From Deltaproteobacteria bacterium RIFCSPHIGHO2_01_FULL_43_49 (lineage in GTDB: Bacteria > UBA10199 > SPLOWO2-01-44-7), in contig MGRG01000001.1 in NCBI GenBank assembly GCA_001798075.1, positions 1 to 46,012 of the forward strand: a stretch of DNA of 46,012 nucleotides, given 5' to 3'. Positions 13,539 to 45,310 of this stretch are shown piece by piece. The translations under genes were made by a program, and so were the position numbers. The notes under the pieces are model-generated. The model was not told the origin of the DNA. It searched no databases and was given only the letters and a program-made list of their open reading frames with translations. Within the stretch, counting starts at the first letter, position 1. Each line of letters starts with the position of its first letter.

Positions 13539-15883
13539 GAATTCTCCAGATTACCGACCAACACTTGGCGTGGTTTGGCTCCATCAGCAGGGCCGACTAC
13601 TCCTTCCGCTTCCATCCGTTCAATCATTCTGGCCGCTCGGTTATAGCCAATGCGTAAACGTCTCTGGATCATGGAGATAGAGGCCTGCTTTGTTTCAGAA
13701 ACTAATTTAACAGCTTGGTCATAGATAACACCATCTTCTTCATCAAAATCATCAAGTTCTTTTGATTCCTCTTCGGGGGTGGCCAGCAAGCTTGTGTCAT
13801 AAGTTGGGGTTCCTTGCTCTTTGAGAAAACCTACGATGCGCATGATTTCGCCCTCAGAGATCAATGCACCATGAATGCGAGTGAGATTAGAAGAAGAGGG
13901 GGGCATAAAAAGCATATCGCCGGCGCCCAACAAACTTTCCGAACCCATTTGATCCAAAATTGTTCTGGCGTCGTGTTTGGAAAAGACTTTGAAGGAAATT
14001 CTCGCGGGAAAGTTCGCTTTGATGAGCCCTGTGATGACATCCACACTGGGTCTTTGGGTTGCCAAAATCAAATGAATCCCTGCAGCCCTCGCCATTTGTG
14101 CCAGTCTTGTAATCGTTTCTTCAAATTCTTGAGAGGCAATCATCATCATGTCAGCCAGTTCATCAATAACGATAACAAGGTAATAAAGTTTACCGGTGTG
14201 ACAGATGGCATCTTTGTTTTGCTCCAATTTTTCTTTGGCCTCCTCTTCCGAGATGAGTTGGATTTGGCTTTGATCAATTTTTTCATTGTAGTTGGTGATG
14301 TTGCGTGTGTTGGCATCGGCCAGCAATCGGTAGCGTCTCTCCATTTCACGCACGGCCCATTTGAGAGCGGCCACGGCTTGCTTGGGTTGGATCACAACCG
14401 GCAAAAGTAGGTGAGGAATTCCTTCATAAATAGATAGCTCCAATCTTTTGGGATCGACTAAGATAAAGCGAACCTCTTGCGGTGTTGCTTTATAGAGCAT
14501 ACTGACAATCATGCTATTTAAGCCGACACTTTTTCCAGAGCCGGTTGCCCCCGCGATCAAAAGATGAGGCATCTTCGTAAGATCGGTTACCATGGGGCGT
14601 CCTTCAATATCTTTTCCCAGCGCCAGGGTCAATTTCGACTTCGATTTTTGAAAAGCGTTGGCCCCGATAATTTCTTTCAGCCAAACTGTTTCGCGCCCAT
14701 GATTGGGAATTTCAATTCCTAAGGCTGCCTTGCCAGGCAGATGTGGGACAATGCGAATCGCTTTGCCACCCATTGTCAGTGAAAGATCGCTTTCCAGATT
14801 GACAATTTTGTTGACCTTTGTTCCTGCCGCCGGTTCAAATTCATACATGGTAATAACAGGTCCCGGATGAATTTCAGTGACTCTCCCTTGAACATCATAG
14901 TCGGTCAGTTTCATTTCTAAAAGTTGGGCACTCTTTTTTAGAGCCTCTTCGTCAATGGGAGTGCTGGTTTGGTTTTCTGCATCGAGCAGAGAAAGGGGAG
15001 GCGGATTAAATCCAGACCCACTGATCTTTAAAAAGCGGAGTTGATCCTCTGGAAAGGCCTTTTTATCCGTATCAGCCCTTTCAAAGATTTTTGGTTCTTT
15101 TGTTTTGTTTTCCGATTCTGTCATTGCGACAGGCACGAGAGTAACAGGTTGCAGCACAGGTTTTGTTTTGTGGATTTTGACTTCAATCTCCTCTTCTTCG
15201 CCTTCAATCTTTCCAAACATCGATAGGAATTGCCCTTTTAACCAAACCCAAAACAATCCAGACGTTTTTTTGCTTCTTTCAAAACTAACCTGCATCCATT
15301 GAACCCATCTGGCTCCAAAATACTGCAAGAGGCGATAGGTATTAATTGCCAGGGCGCTCACTTTGAGGTGTGTTGCCAACACAAACGAAAGGATGACTCC
15401 TGTGAGGGTTACAATTTCAGCGCCAATGCGGTTGAGATAATGGACAAGAAGTTGGGCAAACAGTCCTCCCAAAATTCCGCCACCTGAAAAGCTTTGGCCG
15501 GCAATTTGAACCCGTGGAAAATGGAGTTGCAAGAGGGTTGATAGAGAAACAAGCAGTAGTGTGTAATACAAAACTTCTTTGAGTTTGAGTTCGAGCGATT
15601 CTCCTTTAAACTTCAAAACAGAAAGCAAAAACAAAACTCCCGCCACGGCATAAGCGCAAAGTCCAAGACTGGTTAAAAGAAGATCGGAGAGATAGGCGCC
15701 AATGATTCCTCCTAAATTTTCAACCGTTTGTGCACTGGAGGTGGCATTGAAGCCGGGGTCGGTCGGGTTGTGAGAAAGGAGACAGAGACTGATGAAAAAA
15801 CCGACGGCGAAAAACAAAATCCCATAGACTTCCTTGCGATAGGGGGGGGGTGGGCTTCGTCGGATACTTTTAGAATAGGCCAT
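13535..15883 (-). CDS. ftsK: DNA translocase FtsK/SpoIIIE
   Basis: 782 aa. Four N-terminal membrane helices (about 22-42, 68-90, 100-130, 140-175) anchor it at the septum. After a linker come the motor domains, with Walker A AGATGSGKSVGLNSM (around 443-457) and Walker B LVIVIDELADMMM. The C-terminal winged helix (gamma domain, about 710-775: SISMIQRRLRIGYNRAARM) is the part that reads KOPS-like polar sequences in known FtsK. It pumps chromosome ends into daughter cells and activates XerCD. lolA overlaps its 3' end. Confidence 0.96.
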   Translation of the reverse strand: MAYSKSIRRSPPPPYRKEVYGILFFAVGFFISLCLLSHNPTDPGFNATSSAQTVENLGGIIGAYLSDLLLTSLGLCAYAVAGVLFLLSVLKFKGESLELKLKEVLYYTLLLVSLSTLLQLHFPRVQIAGQSFSGGGILGGLFAQLLVHYLNRIGAEIVTLTGVILSFVLATHLKVSALAINTYRLLQYFGARWVQWMQVSFERSKKTSGLFWVWLKGQFLSMFGKIEGEEEEIEVKIHKTKPVLQPVTLVPVAMTESENKTKEPKIFERADTDKKAFPEDQLRFLKISGSGFNPPPLSLLDAENQTSTPIDEEALKKSAQLLEMKLTDYDVQGRVTEIHPGPVITMYEFEPAAGTKVNKIVNLESDLSLTMGGKAIRIVPHLPGKAALGIEIPNHGRETVWLKEIIGANAFQKSKSKLTLALGKDIEGRPMVTDLTKMPHLLIAGATGSGKSVGLNSMIVSMLYKATPQEVRFILVDPKRLELSIYEGIPHLLLPVVIQPKQAVAALKWAVREMERRYRLLADANTRNITNYNEKIDQSQIQLISEEEAKEKLEQNKDAICHTGKLYYLVIVIDELADMMMIASQEFEETITRLAQMARAAGIHLILATQRPSVDVITGLIKANFPARISFKVFSKHDARTILDQMGSESLLGAGDMLFMPPSSSNLTRIHGALISEGEIMRIVGFLKEQGTPTYDTSLLATPEEESKELDDFDEEDGVIYDQAVKLVSETKQASISMIQRRLRIGYNRAARMIERMEAEGVVGPADGAKPRQVLVGNLENS

Positions 15884-21957: not shown

Positions 21958-22197
21958 ATGTCACAAAAAATGACATGGAAAGAGATGAAAAAAGCATTTC
22001 CAGATGAGTGGTTGTTGATTATCGATTATGAGCGTGATCAATTTGGAAATATCTCATCAGGAATTGTGGAGAGGCATTCGCCTAGTAAAGACGAGGTGTA
22101 CAAACTGCCTGCTGTAAAAAAGCCTGCTGCTTTCGAATATACGGGGGAAAGTACTTTCAGGGGATTTAGGGACCATGCCGAACATCACTGTTTTTGA
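21958..22197 (+). CDS. small hypothetical protein paired with retropepsin-like gene
   Basis: 79 aa with a very good ribosome site (AAAGGAGGACAGT before ATG). The sequence MSQKMTWKEMKKAFPDEWLL and DYERDQFGNISSGIVERHS looks like a compact alpha/beta protein with no membrane segment. Its 3' end overlaps the next gene by 23 bases, so the two are coupled. Function unknown. Confidence 0.75.
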   Translation: MSQKMTWKEMKKAFPDEWLLIIDYERDQFGNISSGIVERHSPSKDEVYKLPAVKKPAAFEYTGESTFRGFRDHAEHHCF

Positions 22198-22570
22198 TCC
22201 CAAAGAACACCACATTCGCCTCGTTGGATCGATGAAAACAGCTGACAGCATCGATTACGAATTTCGCGCCATTCTGGACACGGGTGCTCCATGGTCCGAA
22301 TTTTCTGATCAGTTCCTCCTTGCAGTGGGCATGTTCAACAGTCAAAATCCACCCCCTGCTGTGAGACCAAGCCTCCAAACGCAAAAATATGACAAACTGG
22401 TTTTACCCCAAGTTAAAATCTGTGGGCATGTGATTCCAAAAATGCTGGTTTATATCTCCCATTTTGAAAACCATTGGGGTGTCGATGCTCTCATTGGCCT
22501 CGATTTTTTCCGCCGGTTTCGGGTGACGGTGGATTACAAGCCGGGACATCTGTTAACCGATCCGTTATAA
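22175..22570 (+). CDS. retropepsin-like aspartic protease domain protein
   Basis: 131 aa. It carries the aspartic-protease signature AILDTGAPWSEFSD with Asp35-Thr-Gly-Ala. A C-terminal ALIGLDFFRRFRVTVDY segment matches the I-I-G-x-D-x-L region of small clan AA (retropepsin-fold) proteins, which act as dimers with one Asp from each chain. There is no signal peptide, so it is presumably cytoplasmic. It overlaps the 79-aa gene upstream; the pair probably forms one functional unit, with the small protein a possible partner or substrate (inference). No retroelement gag/pol sequence is nearby. Confidence 0.75.
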   Translation: MPNITVFDPKEHHIRLVGSMKTADSIDYEFRAILDTGAPWSEFSDQFLLAVGMFNSQNPPPAVRPSLQTQKYDKLVLPQVKICGHVIPKMLVYISHFENHWGVDALIGLDFFRRFRVTVDYKPGHLLTDPL

Positions 22571-22653: not shown

Positions 22654-23511
22654 ATGTCATTGGTCATGGGAGCTCAGTTAGCAGCCGAGATACAGACTGG
22701 ATTGCATGCCATCGAAGCCGGTTTGTTATCTGTTCCAGGCGGTACCTTTACGATGGGAGCAGAAGATCTAGGTATTCCTGAAAGAGAGGTAACAGTCGAT
22801 TCTTTTAAAATGGGCAAATACACTGTGACCAATGAGGAATATGATAGCTGGGTAAAAAGCCTTGGGGCCGAAAGATTTTTTCTTTTGAGATATGATTCCA
22901 AAACGGATTCACCCTCCATTGTTGCCAGGGCCTCCAGCAAAGAAGAAGTATTTGGCAGTGGTGTCTTTCAAATAATTGCAGGGGAGCTAATCCAAAAAGG
23001 GGGATTGGACTTTGCTTTGCAAATCGTTGAGATTGAAGACCACCATTCACCAGAAAATTTTGATCGCCCAAATCAACCAGGAGTGAGTGTCAGTTGGTAT
23101 GACTCTATTACTTATGCGTTAATGCATGGAGCCAGATTGGCTACTGAGGAAGAGTGGGAATATGCAGCGACAGAGGGCGGAAAGAAGAAATATGCCACTC
23201 CCTCTGGAAAATTAACTAACGAAGAAGTTCACTTTAATCAAGATATTGAGAAAGGTACAACCATTGATGTAGATGATCCAAGATACCCCGATGGGCCATT
23301 TGGGATTAGACATCTTACTGGCAACGTATGGGAATGGACAGGTAGTTCTTGGGCGCCAGGTAGCCCTCTTAAAGTTTTGCGCGGCGGTTCCTGGAACGAC
23401 GATATTCTGGACGACTTGCGCGCGGCCTGTCGCAGCTACGGCCGCCCCGAGGTTAGCGACGGCTATTTCGGGTTTCGGTTGGTTGTGCGTCGCCAGGACT
23501 CCAGTAAGTAA
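22654..23511 (+). CDS. FGE/SUMF1-fold protein with DGR-type variable C-terminus
   Basis: 285 aa from ATG at 22654, with AGGAGG-like ribosome site; an in-frame TTG lies one codon upstream. The formylglycine-generating-enzyme fold is seen in VPGGTFTMGAEDLGIPEREV, KYTVTNEEYDSWV, ARLATEEEWEYAA and GNVWEWTGSSW, ending in LRGGSWNDD ... RAACRSYGRPE ... GYFGFRLVVRR. Many such proteins are not sulfatase activators but display scaffolds whose C-terminal loops are diversified by DGRs. The last part is distinctly GC-rich relative to the rest of the gene. No export signal is obvious. A paralogue lies at 27497. Confidence 0.85.
   Translation: MSLVMGAQLAAEIQTGLHAIEAGLLSVPGGTFTMGAEDLGIPEREVTVDSFKMGKYTVTNEEYDSWVKSLGAERFFLLRYDSKTDSPSIVARASSKEEVFGSGVFQIIAGELIQKGGLDFALQIVEIEDHHSPENFDRPNQPGVSVSWYDSITYALMHGARLATEEEWEYAATEGGKKKYATPSGKLTNEEVHFNQDIEKGTTIDVDDPRYPDGPFGIRHLTGNVWEWTGSSWAPGSPLKVLRGGSWNDDILDDLRAACRSYGRPEVSDGYFGFRLVVRRQDSSK
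23380..23502 (+). other. candidate DGR variable region 1
   Basis: From CGCGGCGGTTCCTGGAAC to CGCCAGGACTCC. By my count about 65% G+C over 120 bases, well above the preceding coding sequence. The encoded pattern is fixed scaffold residues (RGGSW, LRAA, GFRL) separated by irregular residues (NDDILDD, C, SY, SDGYF), as expected when a template rich in AAC codons is copied with adenine mutagenesis. No template copy was found in the window. Confidence 0.65.
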
Positions 23512-23519
23512 TGTAATTT

Positions 23520-23861
23520 TCAAGCCATTGGGCCGAGAGGTTTTCCACCAATCAAGTGCCAGTGGACATGAAAGACAACCTGACCTGAATTGCGGTTGGT
23601 ATTGATGAGAGTGCGATAACCGGTTTGATCGACTCCTTTTTCTTTGGCAATCTTTTGAGCCACTCCAAAAATCTTGGAAATGATGGGGAGATCTTGAGAA
23701 GGAATATCATTGAGTGTTGCGTAGTGTTTTTTTGGAATGAAAAGAACGTGGACTGGCCCCTTCGGATTAATATCATCGAAAGCGAAAATGTCTTTGTCTT
23801 CATAAACTTTGTTGCAAGAGATCTCTCCAGAAGCAATTTTGCAAAAGATACAGTCACTCAT
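23520..23861 (-). CDS. HIT-family nucleotide hydrolase (HinT-like)
   Basis: 113 aa, the usual length of HinT-like proteins. It has CIFCKIASGEISCNKVYEDK at the N-terminus (Zn-type Cys pair), HVLFIPKKHYATLND in the middle, and the histidine triad FHVHWHLIGGKPLG near the C-terminus, where the central His is the nucleophile. These enzymes hydrolyse AMP-lysine and related phosphoramidates. It starts 15 bases after the HisA-like gene and is probably co-transcribed with it. It converges with the FGE-fold gene, with only 8 bases between the two stops. Confidence 0.93.
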   Translation of the reverse strand: MSDCIFCKIASGEISCNKVYEDKDIFAFDDINPKGPVHVLFIPKKHYATLNDIPSQDLPIISKIFGVAQKIAKEKGVDQTGYRTLINTNRNSGQVVFHVHWHLIGGKPLGPMA

Positions 23862-27496: not shown

Positions 27497-28390
27497 ATGG
27501 GGGCATTATTGGGAACACAGGCAACAGCGGGTTTAAATGCTGCTGAGATTGGACTTGCATGGGGTCAAACCATTGTCGCCGGCACCTATGAAGTCGGTGC
27601 CCCTGATTTGGAGAACAATCCCGTTCGTAATGAAACCATAGATAGGGCCTATGCATTGGCCGACACACCAACCACGAATGCTCAATTTGCCGCCGGCTTG
27701 CGACAGCTTGAAGGCCGCACAACGGTTTTGATGACCACTCTTCCAAAGAATCGTTGGGCTATTTTGGCAAGGGGGACAGAAGAAGAGATAAGAGAAATTG
27801 ATATGAAGAGGTTGACAGAGATTGTTGTCTCACTTGTTCCTCAACAGCCCTCTTTTATCAAAGTAGGTGATTATTTTGCATCTGGTGCGCTGCGAGCATT
27901 TGATTTGGGTGAAGCGCCGATGATAAGAATTGTACCGGTGACATTGGAAGCCCATTTTCCAGAAGGATTTGATCGCCCCAATCAACCGGCATTGACCAGT
28001 CCTTTTGAGTCTTCTGCTTTTGCAGCCCTTTTTGGTTTGGAATTGCCGACAGGGGTAGAGTGGGAGGTAGCCGCCGCAGATCTGAGAGATGAAAGATATA
28101 GAAATGAAAAGAACTTGCGAAGAGTCGCGCATTTTCATCCAACAAGAGCCACGGCAGATGTAAAGACAAAGGAGCCGAATGAATTAGGTTATTTTGACAT
28201 GCTAGGTAATACTTGGGAGGCAATGGCCAATCCTTATATAGAAGGTGAAGAGAATAGAGAATTTCGCGGCGGTTGCTGGTTCAATCGTCCAGAGCGTGTG
28301 CGTGCTGCGATTCGCTACGGCAGCCATCCGGACGGCTGGGACAACGACAGGGGCTTCCGGTTGTTGCGTTTCCAGGACTCCCCGGGCTAA
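27497..28390 (+). CDS. FGE/SUMF1-fold protein 2 with DGR-type variable C-terminus
   Basis: 297 aa, ribosome site AAGGAG before the ATG. It is a divergent paralogue of the protein at 22654: both open with an Ala-rich stretch (TAGLNAAEIGLAWGQ here), share FDRPNQPA/FDRPNQPG in the middle, an E-EWE/VEWE motif (LPTGVEWEVAAADL) and a C-terminal block FRGGCWFNRPERVRAAIRYG ending GFRLLRFQDS. The N-terminal half has lost many FGE consensus residues. The end is a candidate DGR variable region. No reverse transcriptase gene is adjacent. Confidence 0.8.
   Translation: MGALLGTQATAGLNAAEIGLAWGQTIVAGTYEVGAPDLENNPVRNETIDRAYALADTPTTNAQFAAGLRQLEGRTTVLMTTLPKNRWAILARGTEEEIREIDMKRLTEIVVSLVPQQPSFIKVGDYFASGALRAFDLGEAPMIRIVPVTLEAHFPEGFDRPNQPALTSPFESSAFAALFGLELPTGVEWEVAAADLRDERYRNEKNLRRVAHFHPTRATADVKTKEPNELGYFDMLGNTWEAMANPYIEGEENREFRGGCWFNRPERVRAAIRYGSHPDGWDNDRGFRLLRFQDSPG
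28265..28381 (+). other. candidate DGR variable region 2
   Basis: From CGCGGCGGTTGCTGG to TTCCAGGACTCC. It shares its first ten bases and the final CCAGGACTCC, and the scaffold RGG-W, VRAA-R and GFRL, with candidate region 1, but differs through the middle by substitutions and a one-codon shift. That fits a related but separate template, or an older diversified copy. Confidence 0.55.
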
Positions 28391-28412
28391 TGTAGGTTTT
28401 AATCTTTCCCCT

Positions 28413-29483
28413 TTATCCTTTATCGGATTTTAGGGCTTCGGTTTGAAAATGGGTTCTCAAAGGAGGGATGACCTCTTCCAAATGACCATCCATGATTTTG
28501 TCGAGTTGATAAAGGGTTAATCCAATGCGATGATCGGTCAGACGATTTTGGGGGAAATTATAGGTCCGAATTTTTTCACTCCGGTCTCCGGAGCCGACCA
28601 TCCCTTTTCTGGTTTTGGCCATTACGGCTTGTTGTTCTTGCAACATTTTATCGTACAATCTTACTTTCAAGACTTTCATCGCTCTCGCTTTGTTTTTGTG
28701 TTGCGAACGGTCATCCTGGCAGGTGACGACAAGGTTCGTTGGGATGTGAGTGATGCGTACTGCTGATTGTGTTTTGTTGACATGCTGCCCGCCAGGTCCG
28801 CCGGCGGAATAGGTATCAATCCTCAAATCCTTTTCGTCTATTTGGACTTCCACTTCGTCCGGTTCTGGCAACACAGCCACTGTCACCGCCGAAGTATGAA
28901 CACGCCCTTGCTGTTCTGTTTCGGGAACCCTTTGAACGCGGTGGATTCCACTTTCATATTTCAAGTCACTATAAACCATCTTGCCGTTCACCTGCACGAT
29001 GATTTCTTTGAGACCACCGATACCTGTAGAACTCGAATCAACAATTTCTATCTTCCAACCCAGCGATTCGGCATATTTCGAATACATCCGAAACAAATCG
29101 GAGGCAAAGAGGGCCGCTTCGTCTCCACCGGTTCCCGCTCGGATTTCCAAAAAGACGTTTTTGTCGTCATGGGGGTCTTTGGGAAGTAGCAGAATTTTTA
29201 GTTTTTCCTCCAGTGTTTTGAGATTTGTTTCCAATTCTGGCAATTCTTCTTTGGCCATTTGTTGAATCTCGGCGTCTTTTTCGTGAGCGACCAGCTCTTT
29301 ATTTTGGTGAATATGTTTTTGGATGGATTGATACTGACGATAAGTTTTCACGGGTTCTACCAGATCAGAACTTTCTTTTGAGAGTTTTTGAAACAAAAGG
29401 TTATCCGCAATGACCTTTGGATCGGAAAGCTTCTCATTCAGTTCATTGTATCGTTTTACAAGTTGTTCTAGTCTGTTGAACAT
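28413..29483 (-). CDS. prfA: peptide chain release factor 1
   Basis: 356 aa. GGQ motif in YSAGGPGGQHVNKTQSAVR. The stop-codon-reading tripeptide in HRVQRVPETEQQGRVHTSA is PET, of the PxT type that marks RF1 (UAA/UAG) rather than the SPF of RF2. An N-terminal coiled coil (1-100) is present. It releases the finished peptide on the ribosome, and its GGQ glutamine is the substrate of PrmC encoded nearby. Confidence 0.96.
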   Translation of the reverse strand: MFNRLEQLVKRYNELNEKLSDPKVIADNLLFQKLSKESSDLVEPVKTYRQYQSIQKHIHQNKELVAHEKDAEIQQMAKEELPELETNLKTLEEKLKILLLPKDPHDDKNVFLEIRAGTGGDEAALFASDLFRMYSKYAESLGWKIEIVDSSSTGIGGLKEIIVQVNGKMVYSDLKYESGIHRVQRVPETEQQGRVHTSAVTVAVLPEPDEVEVQIDEKDLRIDTYSAGGPGGQHVNKTQSAVRITHIPTNLVVTCQDDRSQHKNKARAMKVLKVRLYDKMLQEQQAVMAKTRKGMVGSGDRSEKIRTYNFPQNRLTDHRIGLTLYQLDKIMDGHLEEVIPPLRTHFQTEALKSDKG

Positions 29484-29884: not shown

Positions 29885-30271
29885 CTAAATTTGTTTCTTT
29901 TTAGGGACTTTTGTGTCGAGGTGTTTAATAAGGCCGCTCAGATATCCCGTATATTGGTCATTAGAAGGTCTTGAAATTCCTGAACTATGCGCTGTTCCTT
30001 GTTGAACTCGATTAATTTTACTGGTCCTAGCTGCTTCGTAGCGGTCTGCATTATTTGAGAAGTCTTGGATGTGCTTTGACTTTATACTCCCCAAAAAGAA
30101 GTCCTTAATGGCGCCTTGAATGGCTTGCCAGCCCCCCTTTTCTCGGGGGTTTTCAACCCCTTTTTCACGCCGCTCCCCATAGGTATTCCCAACCGTTTCA
30201 GCCGGTTTGCGGTGGTTTAGGGCCCCAAAGCCGGTGGGCATATGAGGCTTTTTATTTGGAATATGGCCCAT
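29885..30271 (-). CDS. hypothetical small basic protein
   Basis: 128 aa, rich in Gly, Lys, Asn and Pro (MGHIPNKKPHMPTGFGALNH, then GVENPREKGGWQAI, ending DTKVPKKKQI). It has no domain that I recognise and is likely partly disordered. The ribosome site is modest (AGAAG). It occupies an otherwise empty stretch upstream of rpmE and is on the same strand, which supports it being real, but composition alone does not prove it. Confidence 0.45.
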   Translation of the reverse strand: MGHIPNKKPHMPTGFGALNHRKPAETVGNTYGERREKGVENPREKGGWQAIQGAIKDFFLGSIKSKHIQDFSNNADRYEAARTSKINRVQQGTAHSSGISRPSNDQYTGYLSGLIKHLDTKVPKKKQI

Positions 30272-30306: not shown

Positions 30307-30407
30307 AGTGCTTAAGTGTCTAAGTGCTTATGTTATTAAGTTTAATAATTTCATACACTTATGTATTTATTCACTCACGCACTCACGCACTCACGCACTC
30401 ACGCACT
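30307..30407. repeat. low-complexity region with 8-bp tandem repeat
   Basis: CACTCACG is repeated four and a half times at about 30372-30407, preceded by AAGTGCTTAAGTGTCTAAGTG. The outer pieces AAATAAGTGC and GCACTTAAATTT are partly complementary. Possibly slippage-prone. No gene inside. Confidence 0.6.
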
Positions 30408-39138: not shown

Positions 39139-39681
39139 TTAATTATTTGGTGGGGTGGATTGGCCTTGGTCATTATTTCCCCAGCAGGCCACAGACTCAT
39201 CTCTCTTCACACCGCAGGTGTGGGCATATCCCGCGCTGACTTGGGTGAAGGTTCCCGCTGGAGGAATAGACTGTTCGAAAACGTTAAATCCCCAACAGGC
39301 CACAGACCCATCTGTCTTCACACCGCAGGTGTGCCAATCTCCCGCGCCGACCTGAATCCATTTATCCTCATCCACTGGATCCTTATCTCCACCATCTGGC
39401 ACGCCACCTATCTCCGCCAGGTAAACACAAACTCCATCGTGGCATTCAAGTCCCTTTTTGCAGGGGTTTACAAGATCGCAGGGTTGACCCGGTGCTTTTG
39501 GAGTACACCCAAAAAGAGGAATGGACGAGCCAACAATTTTTGGAAACCAAATAATGTCCCAAACTTTCGTTACGGTCGAGTAGGTATCTTTCGGGCTCGT
39601 CCCTTGAGGGGGTGGGACGTTAATGTATCCCTCTTCGGTACAAATATTGGGCTCAATAGATTGTATGCATGTTATGGACAT
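39139..39681 (-). CDS. short RCC1-repeat protein, probably truncated
   Basis: 180 aa. It has a Cys-containing linker (CDLVNPCKKGLECHDGVC) and then just over one and a half RCC1-type units (GAGDWHTCGVKTDGSVACWG, then SAGYAHTCGVKRDESVACWG), ending in NNDQGQSTPPNN. RCC1 propellers normally have about seven blades, so this protein stops early. The start at 39681 overlaps the end of the collagen-like gene by 10 bases. The frame could be the leftover of a longer surface protein; no signal peptide is seen. Confidence 0.6.
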   Translation of the reverse strand: MSITCIQSIEPNICTEEGYINVPPPQGTSPKDTYSTVTKVWDIIWFPKIVGSSIPLFGCTPKAPGQPCDLVNPCKKGLECHDGVCVYLAEIGGVPDGGDKDPVDEDKWIQVGAGDWHTCGVKTDGSVACWGFNVFEQSIPPAGTFTQVSAGYAHTCGVKRDESVACWGNNDQGQSTPPNN

Positions 39682-41018
39682 CTATAGCAAGCATCCACCC
39701 AATAAATACCACCCAGTACAGCAGCATTTATGTCTTGGTGGGTCCATCCAGAGGGACACGGGTGGTCTTTCCAGTATGTATAAAATACGGGGCACTGCTT
39801 ATCCGTCCTATAGCAAGCAGTTACCCCATTACTACTAGCAGTATATGCAGGCGTATATGCGGTCCATCCAGAGGGACACGTTTGGCCATTGTCTATAAGC
39901 ATGACACTACCACCAACGGCAGCATCAGATCCGGCAGGTCCTTGAGGACCAGTGGCTCCTGTTGCTCCGGTATTTCCTGTTGGTCCTTGAGGTCCCTGTG
40001 GTCCGGTAGCACCAGTTGCTCCGGCAGGTCCTTGCGGACCCGTTGGACCATCGGGACCTGCTGGCCACGATGAGTAACATTGACTTCCGATACAAAGTCC
40101 TGTTCCTTTTACGTATCCCGCCACATCCAATTTTTGAGAAGGACTCGTGGTCCCGATGCCGACGTTGCCGGTGTTCGTGTTGTACATGTCCGCACCGCTC
40201 GCCGCCCAGCCCACCGAGTCGCCCGTGCCGCCAGTCGCTGCAATGGTGATTGTCTGCCCGCTCTCGGAAAGCATCACGTTGGCGCCGGCTGCAAGTCGCA
40301 CATCACCTCGCAGCGTTTGTCCTCCCTCAATGCCAAGAGATTGTACATAACGCTCGTCATGCAGGTGTTCCTCGCGCGCAACGGCATCGAAATCCACGGC
40401 CAGCTCGCCAGAGTTGGTGATGGGGCCGCCTGTGAGTCCCTCACCTGCGGTGACCGAAGTCACTGTTCCCGTGCCCCCACGACCCGGCACCAAATTCAAC
40501 GCGTACACGGCATAAGGTACCACAGCCAGTCTAAGCCTCGGACTCATCTCGCCGTCGCCAGTTACCTCAACTGCCAGCCAGCGGTTTCCAAGAAGAGCCC
40601 CCTCAGGGATGGCTGTTCCACCAGTCCTGGTGTCGCCGAGGACGACGCTGTAAGCACCTTTGTCTAGTATTACTTCCCGAGTCTCCCACCAACTTGCCTG
40701 CTCTTTGCTTAACCTTACCCCACGGTCTGCCGTGTCATAAATCAGGAATGTGATTGTCTTTGCCCCTGTGACAGGGTTGTCGTTTGCATCGAGGAGCCGC
40801 CCTTGATGAGAAATCACCAGGGCAGGCGCACTTGTTGTCTGGGCATGGGCTTCGGGCACAAGGCTGGAAATCCCTTTGAGCATTGCTTGAAATACATCTT
40901 GCACAAGGGTGAACCGATCCTCATTTTCAGGCTGAGTCTTGGATTTACCGGCCTCAAGAAAAAATTGTGTTCGCAGAGGTACGTTGACACTCTGAAAAGA
41001 AATTCTGGGATCACTCAT
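39672..41018 (-). CDS. surface protein with collagen-like repeats
   Basis: 448 aa, start MSDPRISFQ with GGAGG ribosome site. An N-terminal module (about 65-200: APALVISHQGRLLDANDNPV, ITFLIYDTADRG, GNRWLAVEVTGDGEMSPRLR) is shared with the gene upstream. Then comes NVGIGTTSPSQKLDVAGYVK and a Gly-x-y collagen-like stretch (GPDGPTGPQGPAGATGATG and onward, about 16 triplets). The Cys-rich end repeats CPSGWT twice. Probably extracellular and trimeric; no standard signal peptide is evident, so export is unclear. Confidence 0.8.
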   Translation of the reverse strand: MSDPRISFQSVNVPLRTQFFLEAGKSKTQPENEDRFTLVQDVFQAMLKGISSLVPEAHAQTTSAPALVISHQGRLLDANDNPVTGAKTITFLIYDTADRGVRLSKEQASWWETREVILDKGAYSVVLGDTRTGGTAIPEGALLGNRWLAVEVTGDGEMSPRLRLAVVPYAVYALNLVPGRGGTGTVTSVTAGEGLTGGPITNSGELAVDFDAVAREEHLHDERYVQSLGIEGGQTLRGDVRLAAGANVMLSESGQTITIAATGGTGDSVGWAASGADMYNTNTGNVGIGTTSPSQKLDVAGYVKGTGLCIGSQCYSSWPAGPDGPTGPQGPAGATGATGPQGPQGPTGNTGATGATGPQGPAGSDAAVGGSVMLIDNGQTCPSGWTAYTPAYTASSNGVTACYRTDKQCPVFYTYWKDHPCPSGWTHQDINAAVLGGIYWVDACYRCP

Positions 41019-41030
41019 AAATACCTCCTA

Positions 41031-42725
41031 CTACTTTACATAAACCAGTCCCGGCAAGTTGCCCGCCGCGGTACCATTACAACCCGTACCACCGTCATAG
41101 GAGTAGATGACGTAAAAGCAGTTCGCTGTTTGAGTATAGGTGGTTAGGCCAAAGTGATCGGAAGATGGCGTTGCGACGGTCCAGGACCCCGAGGGCGACT
41201 TTGAACACCGCAACATGGCCCCTGCGCCGTCCAGATTGGCAGCGAACACTTTGTTCTCCTGGAAAAACGTGATTTCCGAGCCGCAGTGAAACCGCAGGAG
41301 GCTTGTTGAGTGGTCTCCACGTAGGGTGTTGATAACGGCATCAGAGAGTTTGGCAGTTGACACTTGGGTCGGAGAGCTAAGGGTTCCAACAGCCGCCGCA
41401 TTCCTGTGTGCCTGGTCACTCGAAGTGAGCCGTACGGCGAGCGTCCAACCGCCACCGTCGGTCGTCATGTCGCAATATGCTTGGAACGGTGCGATGGTTG
41501 AGCCGCTCCCGTCGGGATCGATCGTATACAACCCACTCGTGGCCGAAGGCGTACTGGTTTTGATTGTCTTGCATGAGCTGGCATTGGCAGGAGGGAGCGT
41601 GCCAGAGGAGCAGACCCCCTTGAGTTCCAGGGTCCCCGACTCGACAGTGAAACCGGTAAGGAACTGATCCGACGGGCAGGCAAAGCTCTTGATGGTGTTC
41701 AACCGCACGCTCGAAGCTAGATCGGCGTCGAGGTTGGCGACCTTCCCGGTCGCGTTTGCTCCCAGGAGAAAAGGGACGCCCGCTGACGTCGGGTTGAAAA
41801 TAGGCGCCGCGGCGAAGGTCTTGACGCCGGTGAAGTCCTGCGCACCGGCGAGCATCGCGGTGGCGGCCAGGTCGGTCGAGATGGTCGAGTTAGTGATATC
41901 GATACCGTCGCCAGCCGTGTAGGTCGGTCCGTTAGGGCCACCCGTGGCCGCGATGGTCAGCGTCTGGCCCGTTTCGGTGAGCATTACGTTGGCGCCGGCC
42001 GCGAGTTTCACATCACCGCGCAACGTTTGTCCTCCTTCAATGCCAAGAGATTTCACATAACGTTCATCATGCAGGTGATCTTTGTACGCCACCACATCAA
42101 AATCCACGGCTAACTCACCTGACTGTGTGATAGGACCGCCTGTGAGACCTTCACCTGCCGTAACCGAAGTAACGGATCCTGAACCGGCACGACCCGGTGC
42201 CACATTCAACGCGTAGACGGCGTATGGAACGACCGCCAGTCTAAGCCTCGGACTCATCTCGCCGTCGCCAACTACCTCAACAGCCAGCCAGCGGTTTCCA
42301 AACAAGGCAGTCTCAGGGATGGCTGTTCCACCGCTCACGGTGTCACCAAGGATGACATTGTAGGAGCCGTTTGCATCCAGCACGACCTCCCGTGTTTCCC
42401 ACCAACTTGCCTGTTCTTTGCCTAAACTTACCCCACGGTCGGCCGTGTCATAGATCAGAAATGTGATTGTCTTTGCCCCTGTGACAGGATTGTCCGTTGC
42501 ATCCAAAAGCTTTCCTTGATGAGAAATCACCAGGGCCGGTGCACTCGTTGTCTGGGCATGCGCTTCCGGAACCAGACTGGAAACTCCTTTGAGAATTGCC
42601 AGCAGTGCATCTTGTGCAAGAGTTTGATAAACGCTGGATCCCTTGGCATCCTCATCTTTGGGTTTAGCATTGAACGGATTAGATTCAAAAACTGGGTCCG
42701 TTCGGACGGATGCAATTTTATCCAT
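41031..42725 (-). CDS. surface protein with fibrinogen-like C-terminal domain
   Basis: 564 aa. The same N-terminal module as its downstream neighbour (ALVISHQGKLLDATDNPVTG, SLGKEQASWWETREVVLDAN, YAVYALNVAPGR) is followed by a linker and a fibrinogen-related domain: SGLYTIDPDGSGSTIAPFQA, YCDMTTDGGGWTLAVRLTSS, ending CFYVIYSYDGGTGCNGTA. Such domains bind sugars or glycoproteins in animal proteins and in bacterial adhesins. The C-terminal half is visibly more GC-rich than the N-terminal half. Start has GGGAGG. Confidence 0.82.
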   Translation of the reverse strand: MDKIASVRTDPVFESNPFNAKPKDEDAKGSSVYQTLAQDALLAILKGVSSLVPEAHAQTTSAPALVISHQGKLLDATDNPVTGAKTITFLIYDTADRGVSLGKEQASWWETREVVLDANGSYNVILGDTVSGGTAIPETALFGNRWLAVEVVGDGEMSPRLRLAVVPYAVYALNVAPGRAGSGSVTSVTAGEGLTGGPITQSGELAVDFDVVAYKDHLHDERYVKSLGIEGGQTLRGDVKLAAGANVMLTETGQTLTIAATGGPNGPTYTAGDGIDITNSTISTDLAATAMLAGAQDFTGVKTFAAAPIFNPTSAGVPFLLGANATGKVANLDADLASSVRLNTIKSFACPSDQFLTGFTVESGTLELKGVCSSGTLPPANASSCKTIKTSTPSATSGLYTIDPDGSGSTIAPFQAYCDMTTDGGGWTLAVRLTSSDQAHRNAAAVGTLSSPTQVSTAKLSDAVINTLRGDHSTSLLRFHCGSEITFFQENKVFAANLDGAGAMLRCSKSPSGSWTVATPSSDHFGLTTYTQTANCFYVIYSYDGGTGCNGTAAGNLPGLVYVK

Positions 42726-42740
42726 AAAACCTCCCTGCCA

Positions 42741-42780
42741 CGCCGTAGCCCTTCGACATGCTCAGGGCGAAGGCGGGCTT
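42741..42780. repeat. short palindrome between surface-protein genes
   Basis: CGCC...CCCTTCGACATGCTCAGGGCGAAGGCGGG: CCTTCG pairs with CGAAGG across a GACATGCTCAG loop. This CCCTTCGACATGCTCAGGG type of repeat is common between genes. No clear terminator. Confidence 0.5.
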
Positions 42781-42787
42781 AACTTAT

Positions 42788-45115
42788 CTACCTTTGCCTG
42801 AACCACCATCGGTGATTCATGTCGTGAGACGACGAGTGCTGGGCGCCGTTGCAGATGTACAAGTAAGTGTCCGTGTTGCACTCGCTCATGAAGAAGTGGT
42901 GCCAGCCACCATCTGATCTGCTCCCCATATTGATCGAGCAGCCGGCACCTCCCTGGGGGCTGTTGGAGATGACGTCGTAGCAGTTGATCCCCGCCTCGTC
43001 CCTGTTGCCCTGGTCGGTGCAGTTTTGCTTCTTGCCGCACGCGAGGTTCCCGGTCCAGGCAAGCGCGTTATCCGAAATGCGGTACGACTGCATGGTCGTT
43101 GTGGTCGTCGAAGCGGGCGTGGAAGGAACCCAGGACCACCGAGCCGTGTAGTTCCGCACGATCACGTACTCGTAGTTGCCGGATGAATAGGAGGAGTTGT
43201 AACCGTTCTGGTCACCCATAATGTCGAAGTTCTGATTTGGTCCAATGATCGCACGGATCGCGTCGTCTGACAGCTTGTAGATGTTGCCTTTGCGGGTCAG
43301 CGCGTCGGCGATGCTTCCAACCGTACCCGAAGTCCTGTCGCTGCCGTCGCCCATCCGCGAGTACCAACTCTTGACGCCTAAAGTCCACCCGCCCCCGTCG
43401 CGAGTCATGTTACAGACGGCCTGGAAGGCGTCCGAAGTGTTACCTCCGTTTGGGTCGATCCAGTAACTGCCGTCGGTGGCGCTGTTATTGGAGTCCTTAA
43501 TCGCTTTGCAAGAAGGGGCCGCAAGGGCCTGGCTCGATCCATCACCAAAATAAGTAAAAGCATTAGGCAAGACGTAGAAGGCGCCATCGGGATTGCTGAC
43601 CTTCAGGTCCTTAGGTTCAATCGCAGAGCTTTGAGGAGTCTTGGCTGTGATTTGGACTGCGGAGGCGAGAACAATATTGGTGGCAGGAGTATTGCCAACC
43701 AAAACGCTCGCGCCTTGGACGAAATTTGAGCCGTTGATCGTGATCGGCGTTCCACCTGTAATGGATCCGCTGTTCGGAACCACGGAAAAGATGAGGGGTT
43801 GCACAATTTGCAAAGTTCGCCAGCCAGTACCGTCGCAAACCTGGATCGATCCTCCGCTCCAGCGGAGTGCTCCGGCAGTGCCAGTCGCACAATCTTGATC
43901 GTTGGCCGCACCAGGTCGAATGGCTCCTGCAACGTCCAACTTTACAGCGGGGCTTGTTGTTCCAACGCCGACGTTGGTGCCGTTGTCAAAGATAAAGGAA
44001 TTGCCGATGCTGTTTTCCCCTGTGAACTTGGACACATAATTTGAGGTGCCGGAACCCGCAAGTCCCGTATCCGGCGGTGTGGAACAGGCCAAAGCGCCTC
44101 CCACTCCGCTTGCATACTGCCCTGGCGGGCAGGCGGCTGGAAATCCCGTGAGGCTGTCCCAAGGCAAGTTGGTTAGACCGGCACCTGAGCCTGAATATGT
44201 GTTGAGTGCGTTGGGGAATGCAAGTTGTTGTGAGTAGATTCCGGAGAGTCTATCTGATGGGAGTGTGCCGGCGTTCAAGTTGGAGGCGTCTCTATAAAAG
44301 TCCGGCAATTCGCCCGCCAACTTTGCGCTGTTGGCCGCGTTCGCCGCCTGCTCTGCTGTCACCGCGTGCACGTTCGTGAGGGCTGAACCATCTCCTGTGT
44401 ATGTGTTGAGTGCGTTGTCGAAAGCGAGTTGTTGTGAATAGGTTCCAGACAACCTGTCTGATGCCAGTGTACCCGCGTTCAGATTGGAGGCGTCTCTATA
44501 GAAGTCTGGCAGCTCACCGCCCAGCTTCGCCGCATTATTGGCCTGGTCAGCCTTGATTGCCACCGCCGCATAGGGCAAAAGCCCGATGCGAAGCCTTGGC
44601 TCCATCTCTGCCTCACCATCGATTGAGACAGTCAGATAGCGCTCCTCATTCACAGGGAAAAAGCTTGTCGGGAGTGGTTGGCGACCTTCGTCCGTATCGC
44701 CAAGCGTCACTGCGTAAACCCCATTGACGACCTGTACCGTGTACTCCTGCTCCCAAAGTGCTTGCTCGTTTGGAAATTTGACCGGAAAGTCATAGATCCT
44801 GAATTTCATCTGGTGTGCGCCATTCACGGGCGCGTCATTTCCATCAAGAAGTCGACCCTGGTGGGCAAACGCGACATTCTGGGGAGGCACGTCTTCAGCA
44901 GCGTACGCCTCCGACATGAAGAAAGAACCCAAGGCCTTCCATGCATTTTCTGCAAAAGTAATCGCCGAGAAAGGTTTTGGTTTTAGTTGAGAGATTTTTT
45001 TGAAGGGTTCAACGTCTGGATCTGTTTTTCTTGGGGAGGTTTCCGTCGGTGCCGTAGAAAATTTTTCAAAATTGGACCGATTTAAGATCGGCGAGGAAAT
45101 TCGGAGATCACTCAT
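42788..45115 (-). CDS. large surface protein: repeats, TIG domain and fibrinogen-like domain
   Basis: 775 aa from ATG at 45115 (MSDLRISSPILNR), preceded by AAGGAGGTAGCG; 23 more codons upstream are in frame but not likely used. N-terminal module VAFAHQGRLLDGNDAPVNGA; two near-identical repeats with LPDFYRDASNLNAGTL and RLSGTYSQQLAF/RLSGIYSQQLAF; NVGVGTTSPAVKLDVAGAIR; an IPT/TIG immunoglobulin-like domain (FSVVPNSGSITGGTPITING); then a fibrinogen-like domain (YWIDPNGGNTSDAFQAV, CNMTRDGGGWTLGVKSW) with multiple Cys. Probably adhesive and exported, though no classical signal peptide is seen. Confidence 0.82.
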   Translation of the reverse strand: MSDLRISSPILNRSNFEKFSTAPTETSPRKTDPDVEPFKKISQLKPKPFSAITFAENAWKALGSFFMSEAYAAEDVPPQNVAFAHQGRLLDGNDAPVNGAHQMKFRIYDFPVKFPNEQALWEQEYTVQVVNGVYAVTLGDTDEGRQPLPTSFFPVNEERYLTVSIDGEAEMEPRLRIGLLPYAAVAIKADQANNAAKLGGELPDFYRDASNLNAGTLASDRLSGTYSQQLAFDNALNTYTGDGSALTNVHAVTAEQAANAANSAKLAGELPDFYRDASNLNAGTLPSDRLSGIYSQQLAFPNALNTYSGSGAGLTNLPWDSLTGFPAACPPGQYASGVGGALACSTPPDTGLAGSGTSNYVSKFTGENSIGNSFIFDNGTNVGVGTTSPAVKLDVAGAIRPGAANDQDCATGTAGALRWSGGSIQVCDGTGWRTLQIVQPLIFSVVPNSGSITGGTPITINGSNFVQGASVLVGNTPATNIVLASAVQITAKTPQSSAIEPKDLKVSNPDGAFYVLPNAFTYFGDGSSQALAAPSCKAIKDSNNSATDGSYWIDPNGGNTSDAFQAVCNMTRDGGGWTLGVKSWYSRMGDGSDRTSGTVGSIADALTRKGNIYKLSDDAIRAIIGPNQNFDIMGDQNGYNSSYSSGNYEYVIVRNYTARWSWVPSTPASTTTTTMQSYRISDNALAWTGNLACGKKQNCTDQGNRDEAGINCYDVISNSPQGGAGCSINMGSRSDGGWHHFFMSECNTDTYLYICNGAQHSSSHDMNHRWWFRQR

Positions 45116-45310
45116 CGCTACCTCCTTATTGATTGATAACCACCGCCCCCAAAGTTCTTTGTATAGAGTGTTTCCTACTCCCACAATGAAGCCGTTGGCA
45201 AGGGCTTTTTTACCCTAATCATAATCAGCACTTAGAAAAAATGGTTTAAAGTAAGAGGGAATTTGGGTTAAAATATAGCTTGGAAAAGGAAGGAGAAAGA
45301 GTGGTCAAGA

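What the first reader, a model, noticed from the sequence alone, without database searches (positions are those of the whole stretch)
23380..23502. DGR-type variable region in FGE-fold protein, with no local RT or template
The C-terminus of the FGE-fold gene has the layout of a diversity-generating retroelement target: GC-rich (about 65% over 120 bases against a lower-GC gene body), scaffold RGGSW-LRAA-GFR, and irregular residues at positions where templates typically carry AAC codons. No reverse transcriptase, Avd-like gene or second near-identical template copy is seen in the 46 kb, so diversification would have to act from elsewhere in the genome.
Basis: partly seen in the sequence, partly recalled or inferred. 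Interest (0 to 1): 0.8.

Follow-up and report, generated by a model that had tools for sequence, protein, structure and literature searches.

The report
Orphaned hypervariable gene pair, mutator lost
Two genes in this window end in hypervariable segments written by a self-mutating system (a diversity-generating retroelement) that the genome no longer carries; in close relatives that still have it, the mutator enzyme's gene contains a short repeat that looks like an on/off switch, which I found described nowhere.

Summary
The variable region (VR) is real. The FGE gene's last ~125 bp are 65% GC (body 44%), carry NNC/NNT codons where relatives' templates (TRs) encode Asn, and end in CCAGGACTC, the VR end mark of this bacterial class (TRs end CAGCACTYC). 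The assembly (98% complete) has no RT, Avd, TR or template-RNA flank. Same-family relatives G002 and G005 carry the nearest FGE targets with Avd and RT directly downstream. Behind VR1 the usual DGR 3' flank (pyrimidine tract, often a hairpin) is missing and a convergent gene ends 8 bp away. Best reading: two frozen targets of lost DGRs, so "acts from elsewhere" is not supported. Orphan targets have precedent (T. denticola). The surprise lies in the relatives: 8 of 10 class DGR RT genes carry a tandem repeat (mostly tetranucleotide) at one site before RT motif 4, and the two halves are out of frame in 7 of 9 readable RTs; 0 of 158 RTs outside the class have such a repeat. This suggests phase-variable DGRs. 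Slippage itself is inferred, not observed.

The parts
22654..23511 (+). FGE1: FGE-fold DGR target gene (ATG start; the ORF list begins at TTG 22651)
   Evidence: PF03781 E=7e-38; tree places it with DGR-linked targets G002_C53, G005_C158, G026_C12
23374..23503 (+). VR1, the variable region
   Evidence: GC island; matches the TR of G005 at 23374-23478, E=3e-7; A-biased mismatches and 12/12 C/T-ending codons
23493..23501 (+). VR end mark (IMH-like) CCAGGACTC
   Evidence: VRs of intact class cassettes end in this or a close variant, TRs in CAGCACTYC
23512..23524 (+). Remnant of the DGR 3' flank (TGTAATTTTC...); pyrimidine tract, hairpin, avd, RT and TR of related cassettes are absent beyond it
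   Evidence: Comparison of post-stop sequences
23520..23861 (-). Convergent HIT-family-like gene that now abuts FGE1
   Evidence: ORF list; HIT naming from its HVHWH motif, my reading
27497..28390 (+). FGE2: second FGE-fold DGR target gene
   Evidence: PF03781 E=2e-24; nearest rows G003_C46, G002_C42, G001_C74, G026_C18 in the tree
28266..28383 (+). VR2, second variable region
   Evidence: 65% GC vs 47% body; 12/12 C/T-ending codons, weaker A bias p 6e-4 to 0.04
28372..28380 (+). VR end mark CCAGGACTC of VR2
28391..28425 (+). Retained pyrimidine-rich DGR 3' flank of VR2 (no strong hairpin)
21961..22570 (+). Upstream pair (small protein + aspartic-protease-like gene) also found directly upstream of the G005 DGR target; a multi-copy pair, so weak evidence of synteny

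Best explanation
VR1 and VR2 are former targets of diversity-generating retroelements. In an ancestor a cassette FGE target - avd - RT - TR wrote A-mutated cDNA copies of a TR into the 3' end of the FGE gene, setting the residues of its presumed ligand-binding surface. The lineage has since lost RT, Avd and TR; at the VR1 locus most simply by a deletion that starts about 13 bp after the target's stop codon. The genes keep the last variants written and now evolve only by ordinary mutation. Shown: VR anatomy, absence of the machinery from the assembly, and related targets with complete cassettes in the same family. Inferred: the deletion and its junction, and that the proteins still bind something. 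In relatives most RT genes carry a frame-breaking tandem repeat, so the wider picture is a DGR lineage that is often off (by repeat slippage, inferred) and repeatedly deleted.
For: VR-type end mark, GC island, C/T-ending codons and A-biased mismatch. True TR/VR pairs in four relatives: 15-21 of ~29 A sites changed, 0 of ~68 others. No RT, Avd, second copy or TR+flank in the own assembly, while the TR+flank query finds 12 relatives. FGE1 groups with targets that have avd and RT directly downstream. The 3' flank is truncated behind VR1. Decay stages in relatives: G019_C70, G005_C133, and TR-flank recombinants G003_C46, G027_C24, G001_C104, G002_C42. Precedent in T. denticola (PMC4891356).
Against: The assembly is a 15-contig draft; a DGR in a gap or on an extrachromosomal element would be missed. 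No occupied site of the same gene order was found downstream of FGE1, so the deletion is inferred. Tree support around FGE1 is moderate (87/71, 94/80). The own TR is gone, so A-specificity could only be tested against foreign TRs.
Confidence: 0.8

Rival explanations
1. VR1 and VR2 are live remote targets of a DGR encoded in DNA missing from the assembly (gap, plasmid or phage) and are still diversified in trans.
For: Remote and trans-diversified targets are reported in other bacteria (PMC10907252); the assembly is a draft; VR1's GC island has not decayed towards the genome mean.
Against: 98% complete with no RT, Avd, TR or flank; two different VR ends would need two templates; the 3' flank of VR1 is truncated; no phage or plasmid match.
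Confidence: 0.12
2. The FGE target genes were acquired by horizontal transfer without the retroelement, so this lineage never had the machinery.
For: No remnant of avd, RT or TR is left in the genome; an alternative of this kind is also named by the T. denticola authors for one gene.
Against: Gene bodies have the host's GC (0.44-0.47); FGE2 has relatives in three other genera of the same family at 55-60% identity; same-family genomes G002 and G005 have complete cassettes; decay stages are frequent in the class.
Confidence: 0.05
3. It is just the ordinary C-terminus of an FGE-fold protein, GC-rich by chance, and was never a DGR target.
For: RGGSW...GFR is conserved in FGE proteins generally, and the positions between are tolerant in any case.
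Against: FGE genes of the class without DGR traits show a 3' GC difference near zero and no end mark; VR1 and VR2 have +0.18, an exact CCAGGACTC beyond the FGE domain, and the DGR-type post-stop sequence.
Confidence: 0.02

Closest known systems
Complete DGR cassettes of the same class (G005:C158, G002:C53+C78, G026:C12; found here)
   Same: FGE-fold target, VR position, GC island, end mark CCAGGACTC or a close variant, post-stop TAATGTA-like sequence, class-type codons
   Different: They have avd, RT and TR directly downstream plus pyrimidine tract and hairpin; the window has none of these behind VR1
Treponema denticola isolates with target genes but without RT and TR (PMC4891356)
   Same: Orphan VR-bearing targets read as leftovers of lost DGRs
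   Different: Different phylum and target family; there several isolates of one species allow comparison, here none is held
Trans-diversified targets of Thiohalocapsa PB-PSB1 (PMC10907252)
   Same: Target loci without a local complete cassette; FGE/C-type-lectin fold
   Different: There RT and TR exist elsewhere in the genome and variation was seen; here neither exists in the assembly
Tetranucleotide contingency loci, e.g. Haemophilus influenzae LOS genes (PMC3938747)
   Same: Coding tetranucleotide repeats that set the reading frame (seen in the relatives' DGR RTs, not in the window)
   Different: The switched gene would be a mutator RT rather than a surface structure; no paper on such a DGR was found

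Membership tests
Complete, active DGR | DGR-type reverse transcriptase in the genome | tested here: not met
   No RVT_1 match in the 98% complete assembly; the control genomes ring
Complete, active DGR | Template repeat near-identical to the VR outside adenines | tested here: not met
   No second copy; of TR+3' flank of G005 only VR1 is matched
Complete, active DGR | Accessory protein Avd | tested here: not met
   bAvd best E=0.35, below cut-off
Complete, active DGR | Ongoing A-specific variation in the population | not testable with these tools
   No reads and no second genome of the genus held
DGR target (VR) as an orphan | VR at the 3' end of a C-type-lectin/FGE-fold gene | tested here: met
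   PF03781 in both genes; FGE/SUMF1 are the nearest solved relatives of FGE1
DGR target (VR) as an orphan | Differences from the template confined to adenines | tested here: inconclusive
   Own template lost; against foreign TRs A sites are enriched (VR1 best p=2e-6; VR2 p 6e-4 to 0.04), and 12/12 codons end in C/T in both
DGR target (VR) as an orphan | IMH-like end mark distinct from the TR's | tested here: met
   CCAGGACTC at 23493 and 28372; class TRs have CAGCACTYC
DGR target (VR) as an orphan | Hairpin/cruciform downstream of the IMH | tested here: not met
   None behind VR1; only a weak 7-bp one behind VR2; 14-15 bp in G002, G005, G026. Fits loss of function
SSR phase-variable gene (relatives' DGR RTs) | Coding tandem repeat of a unit not divisible by three that breaks the frame | tested here: met
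   8 of 10 class RTs have the repeat, 7 of 9 readable RTs are out of frame; 0 of 158 outside the class have the repeat
SSR phase-variable gene (relatives' DGR RTs) | Copy number differs among cells or strains and toggles expression | not testable with these tools
   One genome per species and no reads; only the G002 contig break inside the repeat hints at it

The most novel reading that the evidence does not exclude
The DGRs of this bacterial class are phase-variable. A tandem repeat (AGCC, CATC, AATC, ACTC, CAGA or an 8-mer) at one conserved site of the RT gene, just before RT motif 4, slips to put the catalytic half in or out of frame, so that hypermutation runs only in rare ON cells and written variants are otherwise frozen. 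The window genome is the end point, in which the machinery was lost and two frozen targets remain. The repeats and frame breaks are shown; slippage and switching are inferred.
Probability: 0.6. Interest if true: 0.82.

Novelty: new variant of a known kind. Interest (0 to 1): 0.62.

Why it matters
For the window itself: two naturally frozen outputs of a DGR, in a host without the mutator, show what is kept after diversification stops. For the lineage: how cells keep a targeted mutator from running all the time is an open question as far as I know. A conserved, frame-breaking repeat inside the mutator's own gene would be a simple answer (a contingency locus that controls a mutator), and it can be tested with reads and a reporter. 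Annotation pipelines that demand an intact RT ORF would score such elements as dead or miss them.

Tried and rejected
Trans-acting DGR in the own genome: RT, Avd, second-copy and TR+flank searches negative. Phage or plasmid origin: no DNA match; no viral contig encodes a relative of FGE1. Ordinary FGE C-terminus: rejected by comparison of ~57 class FGE genes. Programmed frameshifting as the reason for the split RTs: +1 and +2 offsets both occur, so no single frameshift rule fits. Gene-order proof of the deletion: failed, because downstream neighbours differ in G002 and the G005 contig ends soon after the TR; the upstream protease pair is multi-copy. Structure prediction of FGE1: pLDDT 36, not used. 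IMH*-like 9-mers on the minus strand at 14959 and 42834 were taken as chance (about 0.35 expected in the window). Wu et al. 2018 NAR was not held. No Rfam family covers the template RNA region.

Full report
OBSERVATION. The 3' end of the FGE-fold gene at 22654-23511 is a 65% GC island in a 44% GC gene. Both genes match PF03781. The protein scaffold RGGSW..GFR is common to FGE proteins and proves nothing alone, so I tested the DNA.

IS IT A DGR VARIABLE REGION? A DNA search of 99 related and control genomes with VR1 hit several relatives, among them G005 of the same family, where two hits flank an RT. Reading those loci gave complete cassettes FGE target - avd - RT - TR. In four of them TR and VR differ at 15-21 of ~29 template A sites and at 0 of ~68 other sites, so the DGR mechanism is beyond doubt in the class. 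VR1 compared with eight foreign TRs is changed at 17-19 of ~29 A sites but at only 10-21 of ~68 other sites (best p = 2e-6), although those TRs come from other genera. At the 12 positions where the TRs carry Asn codons, all 12 codons of VR1 and all 12 of VR2 end in C or T, as A-mutated AAC/AAT must (p about 3e-4 and 1e-4). VR2's A bias is weaker (p 6e-4 to 0.04). VRs of intact class cassettes end in CCAGGACTC or a close variant (G005_C158: CCAGGAC followed by the stop TAA; G005_C133: CAGGGACC), and TRs in CAGCACTYC (G005_C133: GAGCACTCC). This looks like the IMH/IMH* distinction known from the Bordetella phage DGR (my knowledge; the terms are explained in PMC6642488). VR1 and VR2 both carry the VR-type mark (23493, 28372). 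FGE genes of the class without DGR traits have a 3' GC difference near zero and no such mark.

WHERE IS THE MACHINERY? In the own genome (2.23 Mb, 15 contigs, 98.15% complete) there is no RVT_1 match, no Avd (best E = 0.35), no second VR-like copy, and of the 310-bp TR plus conserved 3' flank from G005 only VR1 itself is matched, while the same query finds matches in 12 relatives. Phage and plasmid collections gave nothing. It cannot be excluded for unassembled DNA.

HOW WAS IT LOST? In a tree of FGE gene bodies FGE1 (with a third own FGE gene on C2, whose 3' end looks decayed) sits beside the targets G002_C53, G005_C158 and G026_C12, each with avd and RT directly downstream; support for the joining branches is moderate, 87/71 to 94/80. 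In the window the convergent gene ends 8 bp after the FGE1 stop. Intact cassettes continue after the stop with a pyrimidine tract, and many with a 7-15 bp hairpin; VR1 keeps only TGTAATTTTC, and VR2 keeps the tract but no strong hairpin. The simplest reading is a deletion that removed tract, hairpin, avd, RT and TR behind FGE1. I could not show an occupied site, so the junction is inferred. Relatives show such decay in progress: G019_C70 has an avd start fused to the RT C-terminal half; G005_C133 keeps a TR, an Avd piece and a 29-residue RT end; and in G003_C46, G027_C24, G001_C104 and G002_C42 the target is followed by TR-type flank, as expected if VR and TR, being direct repeats, recombined and dropped avd-RT. 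Orphan VR-type ends also occur in the RT-less genomes G003, G011 and G022. Orphan targets after DGR loss are known from Treponema denticola (PMC4891356).

WHAT THE RELATIVES ADD. In the class, 8 of 10 DGR RT genes carry a tandem repeat at one site just before RT motif 4 (GIPIGNLTSQ): (AGCC)10 in G005, (AGCC)9 in G026, (AGCC)5 or more in G002 where two contigs end in the repeat, (CATC)8 in G019_C36, (AATC)12 in G041_C247, (ACTC)8 in G041_C208, about four copies of CAGA in G027, and four copies of an 8-mer in G016. G020 has only a short relic and G044 has none. The sequence to its left is TTGCA in nearly all, so the site is probably homologous while the unit has changed. The upstream half is out of frame with the catalytic half in seven of the nine RTs where this can be read (G005, G026, G016, G020, G019_C36, G041 twice), with both +1 and +2 offsets. 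Only G027 (N-terminally truncated) and G044 (no repeat) are in frame, and G002 cannot be read. G019_C36 is also internally deleted. Among 78 DGR RTs of other bacteria and 80 on viral contigs none has such a repeat, and nearly all are open through this region; Fisher p = 3e-12. The 19-mer CAGCCAGCCAGCCAGCCAG occurs nowhere else in the 46 class genomes, and in ~0.8 Mb of fetched class DNA all but two such repeats are in these RTs. I infer a contingency switch on the mutator. The alternative is that the repeat is a slippage-prone site in RTs that are dying anyway. Persistence of repeats with several different units in several families argues for selection, but no copy-number variation was seen, because only one genome per species is held. 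Paper searches found no description of a phase-variable DGR RT; most subscription papers are not in that library.

FUNCTION. The FGE proteins have no obvious signal peptide (my reading) and the nearest solved relatives of FGE1 are FGE/SUMF1 enzymes. In DGR targets this fold serves as a ligand-binding scaffold (PMC10907252). What these proteins bind is unknown. The AlphaFold model was too poor to map the VR.

VERDICT. Observation confirmed; interpretation half right. The window holds two frozen DGR targets whose mutator has been lost. The novelty lies in the lineage's RT repeat rather than in the window, and I score it as a new variant of a known kind with that caveat; taken alone, the window's orphan VRs would be new members of a known kind.

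Noticed in passing
L055:803-842 (G005), L060:7756-7791 (G026), L057:10106-10125 (G002), L082:2146 (G019), L084:2087 and L092 near 1565 (G041), L093 upstream of 3115 (G027), L058 upstream of 6334 (G016): Tandem repeats (AGCC, CATC, AATC, ACTC, CAGA, 8-mer) at the same site of the DGR RT gene, just before motif 4, mostly leaving the two RT halves out of frame; absent from 158 DGR RTs outside the class.
   Followed up: yes
window 27497-28390, VR2 at 28266-28383: Second orphan DGR target in the window, with its own VR end mark and a retained pyrimidine tract.
   Followed up: yes
G003:C46 (L257), G027:C24 (L251), G001:C104 (L222), G002:C42 (L372): Orphan target genes followed by TR-type 3' flank, as expected from VR x TR recombination that excises avd and RT.
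   Followed up: partly
L055:1-150 (minus strand) and homologues in G002, G026, G020, G041, G016, G019: About 200 nt downstream of the TR is strongly conserved across the class (74-79% DNA identity), probably part of the template RNA; no Rfam match.
   Followed up: partly
L056:8200-8610 (G005:C133): A TR with only a 29-residue RT end and an Avd fragment near a second VR target: a decayed or satellite cassette that the complete RT of C158 might serve in trans.
   Followed up: no
G000:C12:309891-309915 (L002:1501-1525): A VR-end-like sequence CCAGGACTCC...GTAAT without an FGE gene, possibly the relic of a third target; about 0.1 expected by chance in the genome, my estimate.
   Followed up: partly
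G000:C2:25280-26227 (L266 near 2020-2185): Third own FGE gene, sister of FGE1 in the tree, with a low-GC C-terminus and the end CCTCAGAACTCC: possibly a fully decayed VR.
   Followed up: partly
window 21961-22570; G000:C12:183710, C8:382909, C6:64731: A pair of a small protein and an aspartic-protease-like protein, four copies in this genome and several in relatives, always together: looks like a toxin-antitoxin-type or mobile module of unknown role.
   Followed up: no
window 30372-30403: Repeat (CACTCACG)4 about 100 bp upstream of the 128-aa ORF 29885-30271 (-); the only other long short-unit repeat seen in the window.
   Followed up: no
window 39139-45184 (-): Row of GC-rich large proteins sharing a 'HQGRLLD..VVPYAVYA' region, one with collagen-like G-x-y repeats, others with fibrinogen-like C-termini; probably surface proteins.
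   Followed up: no
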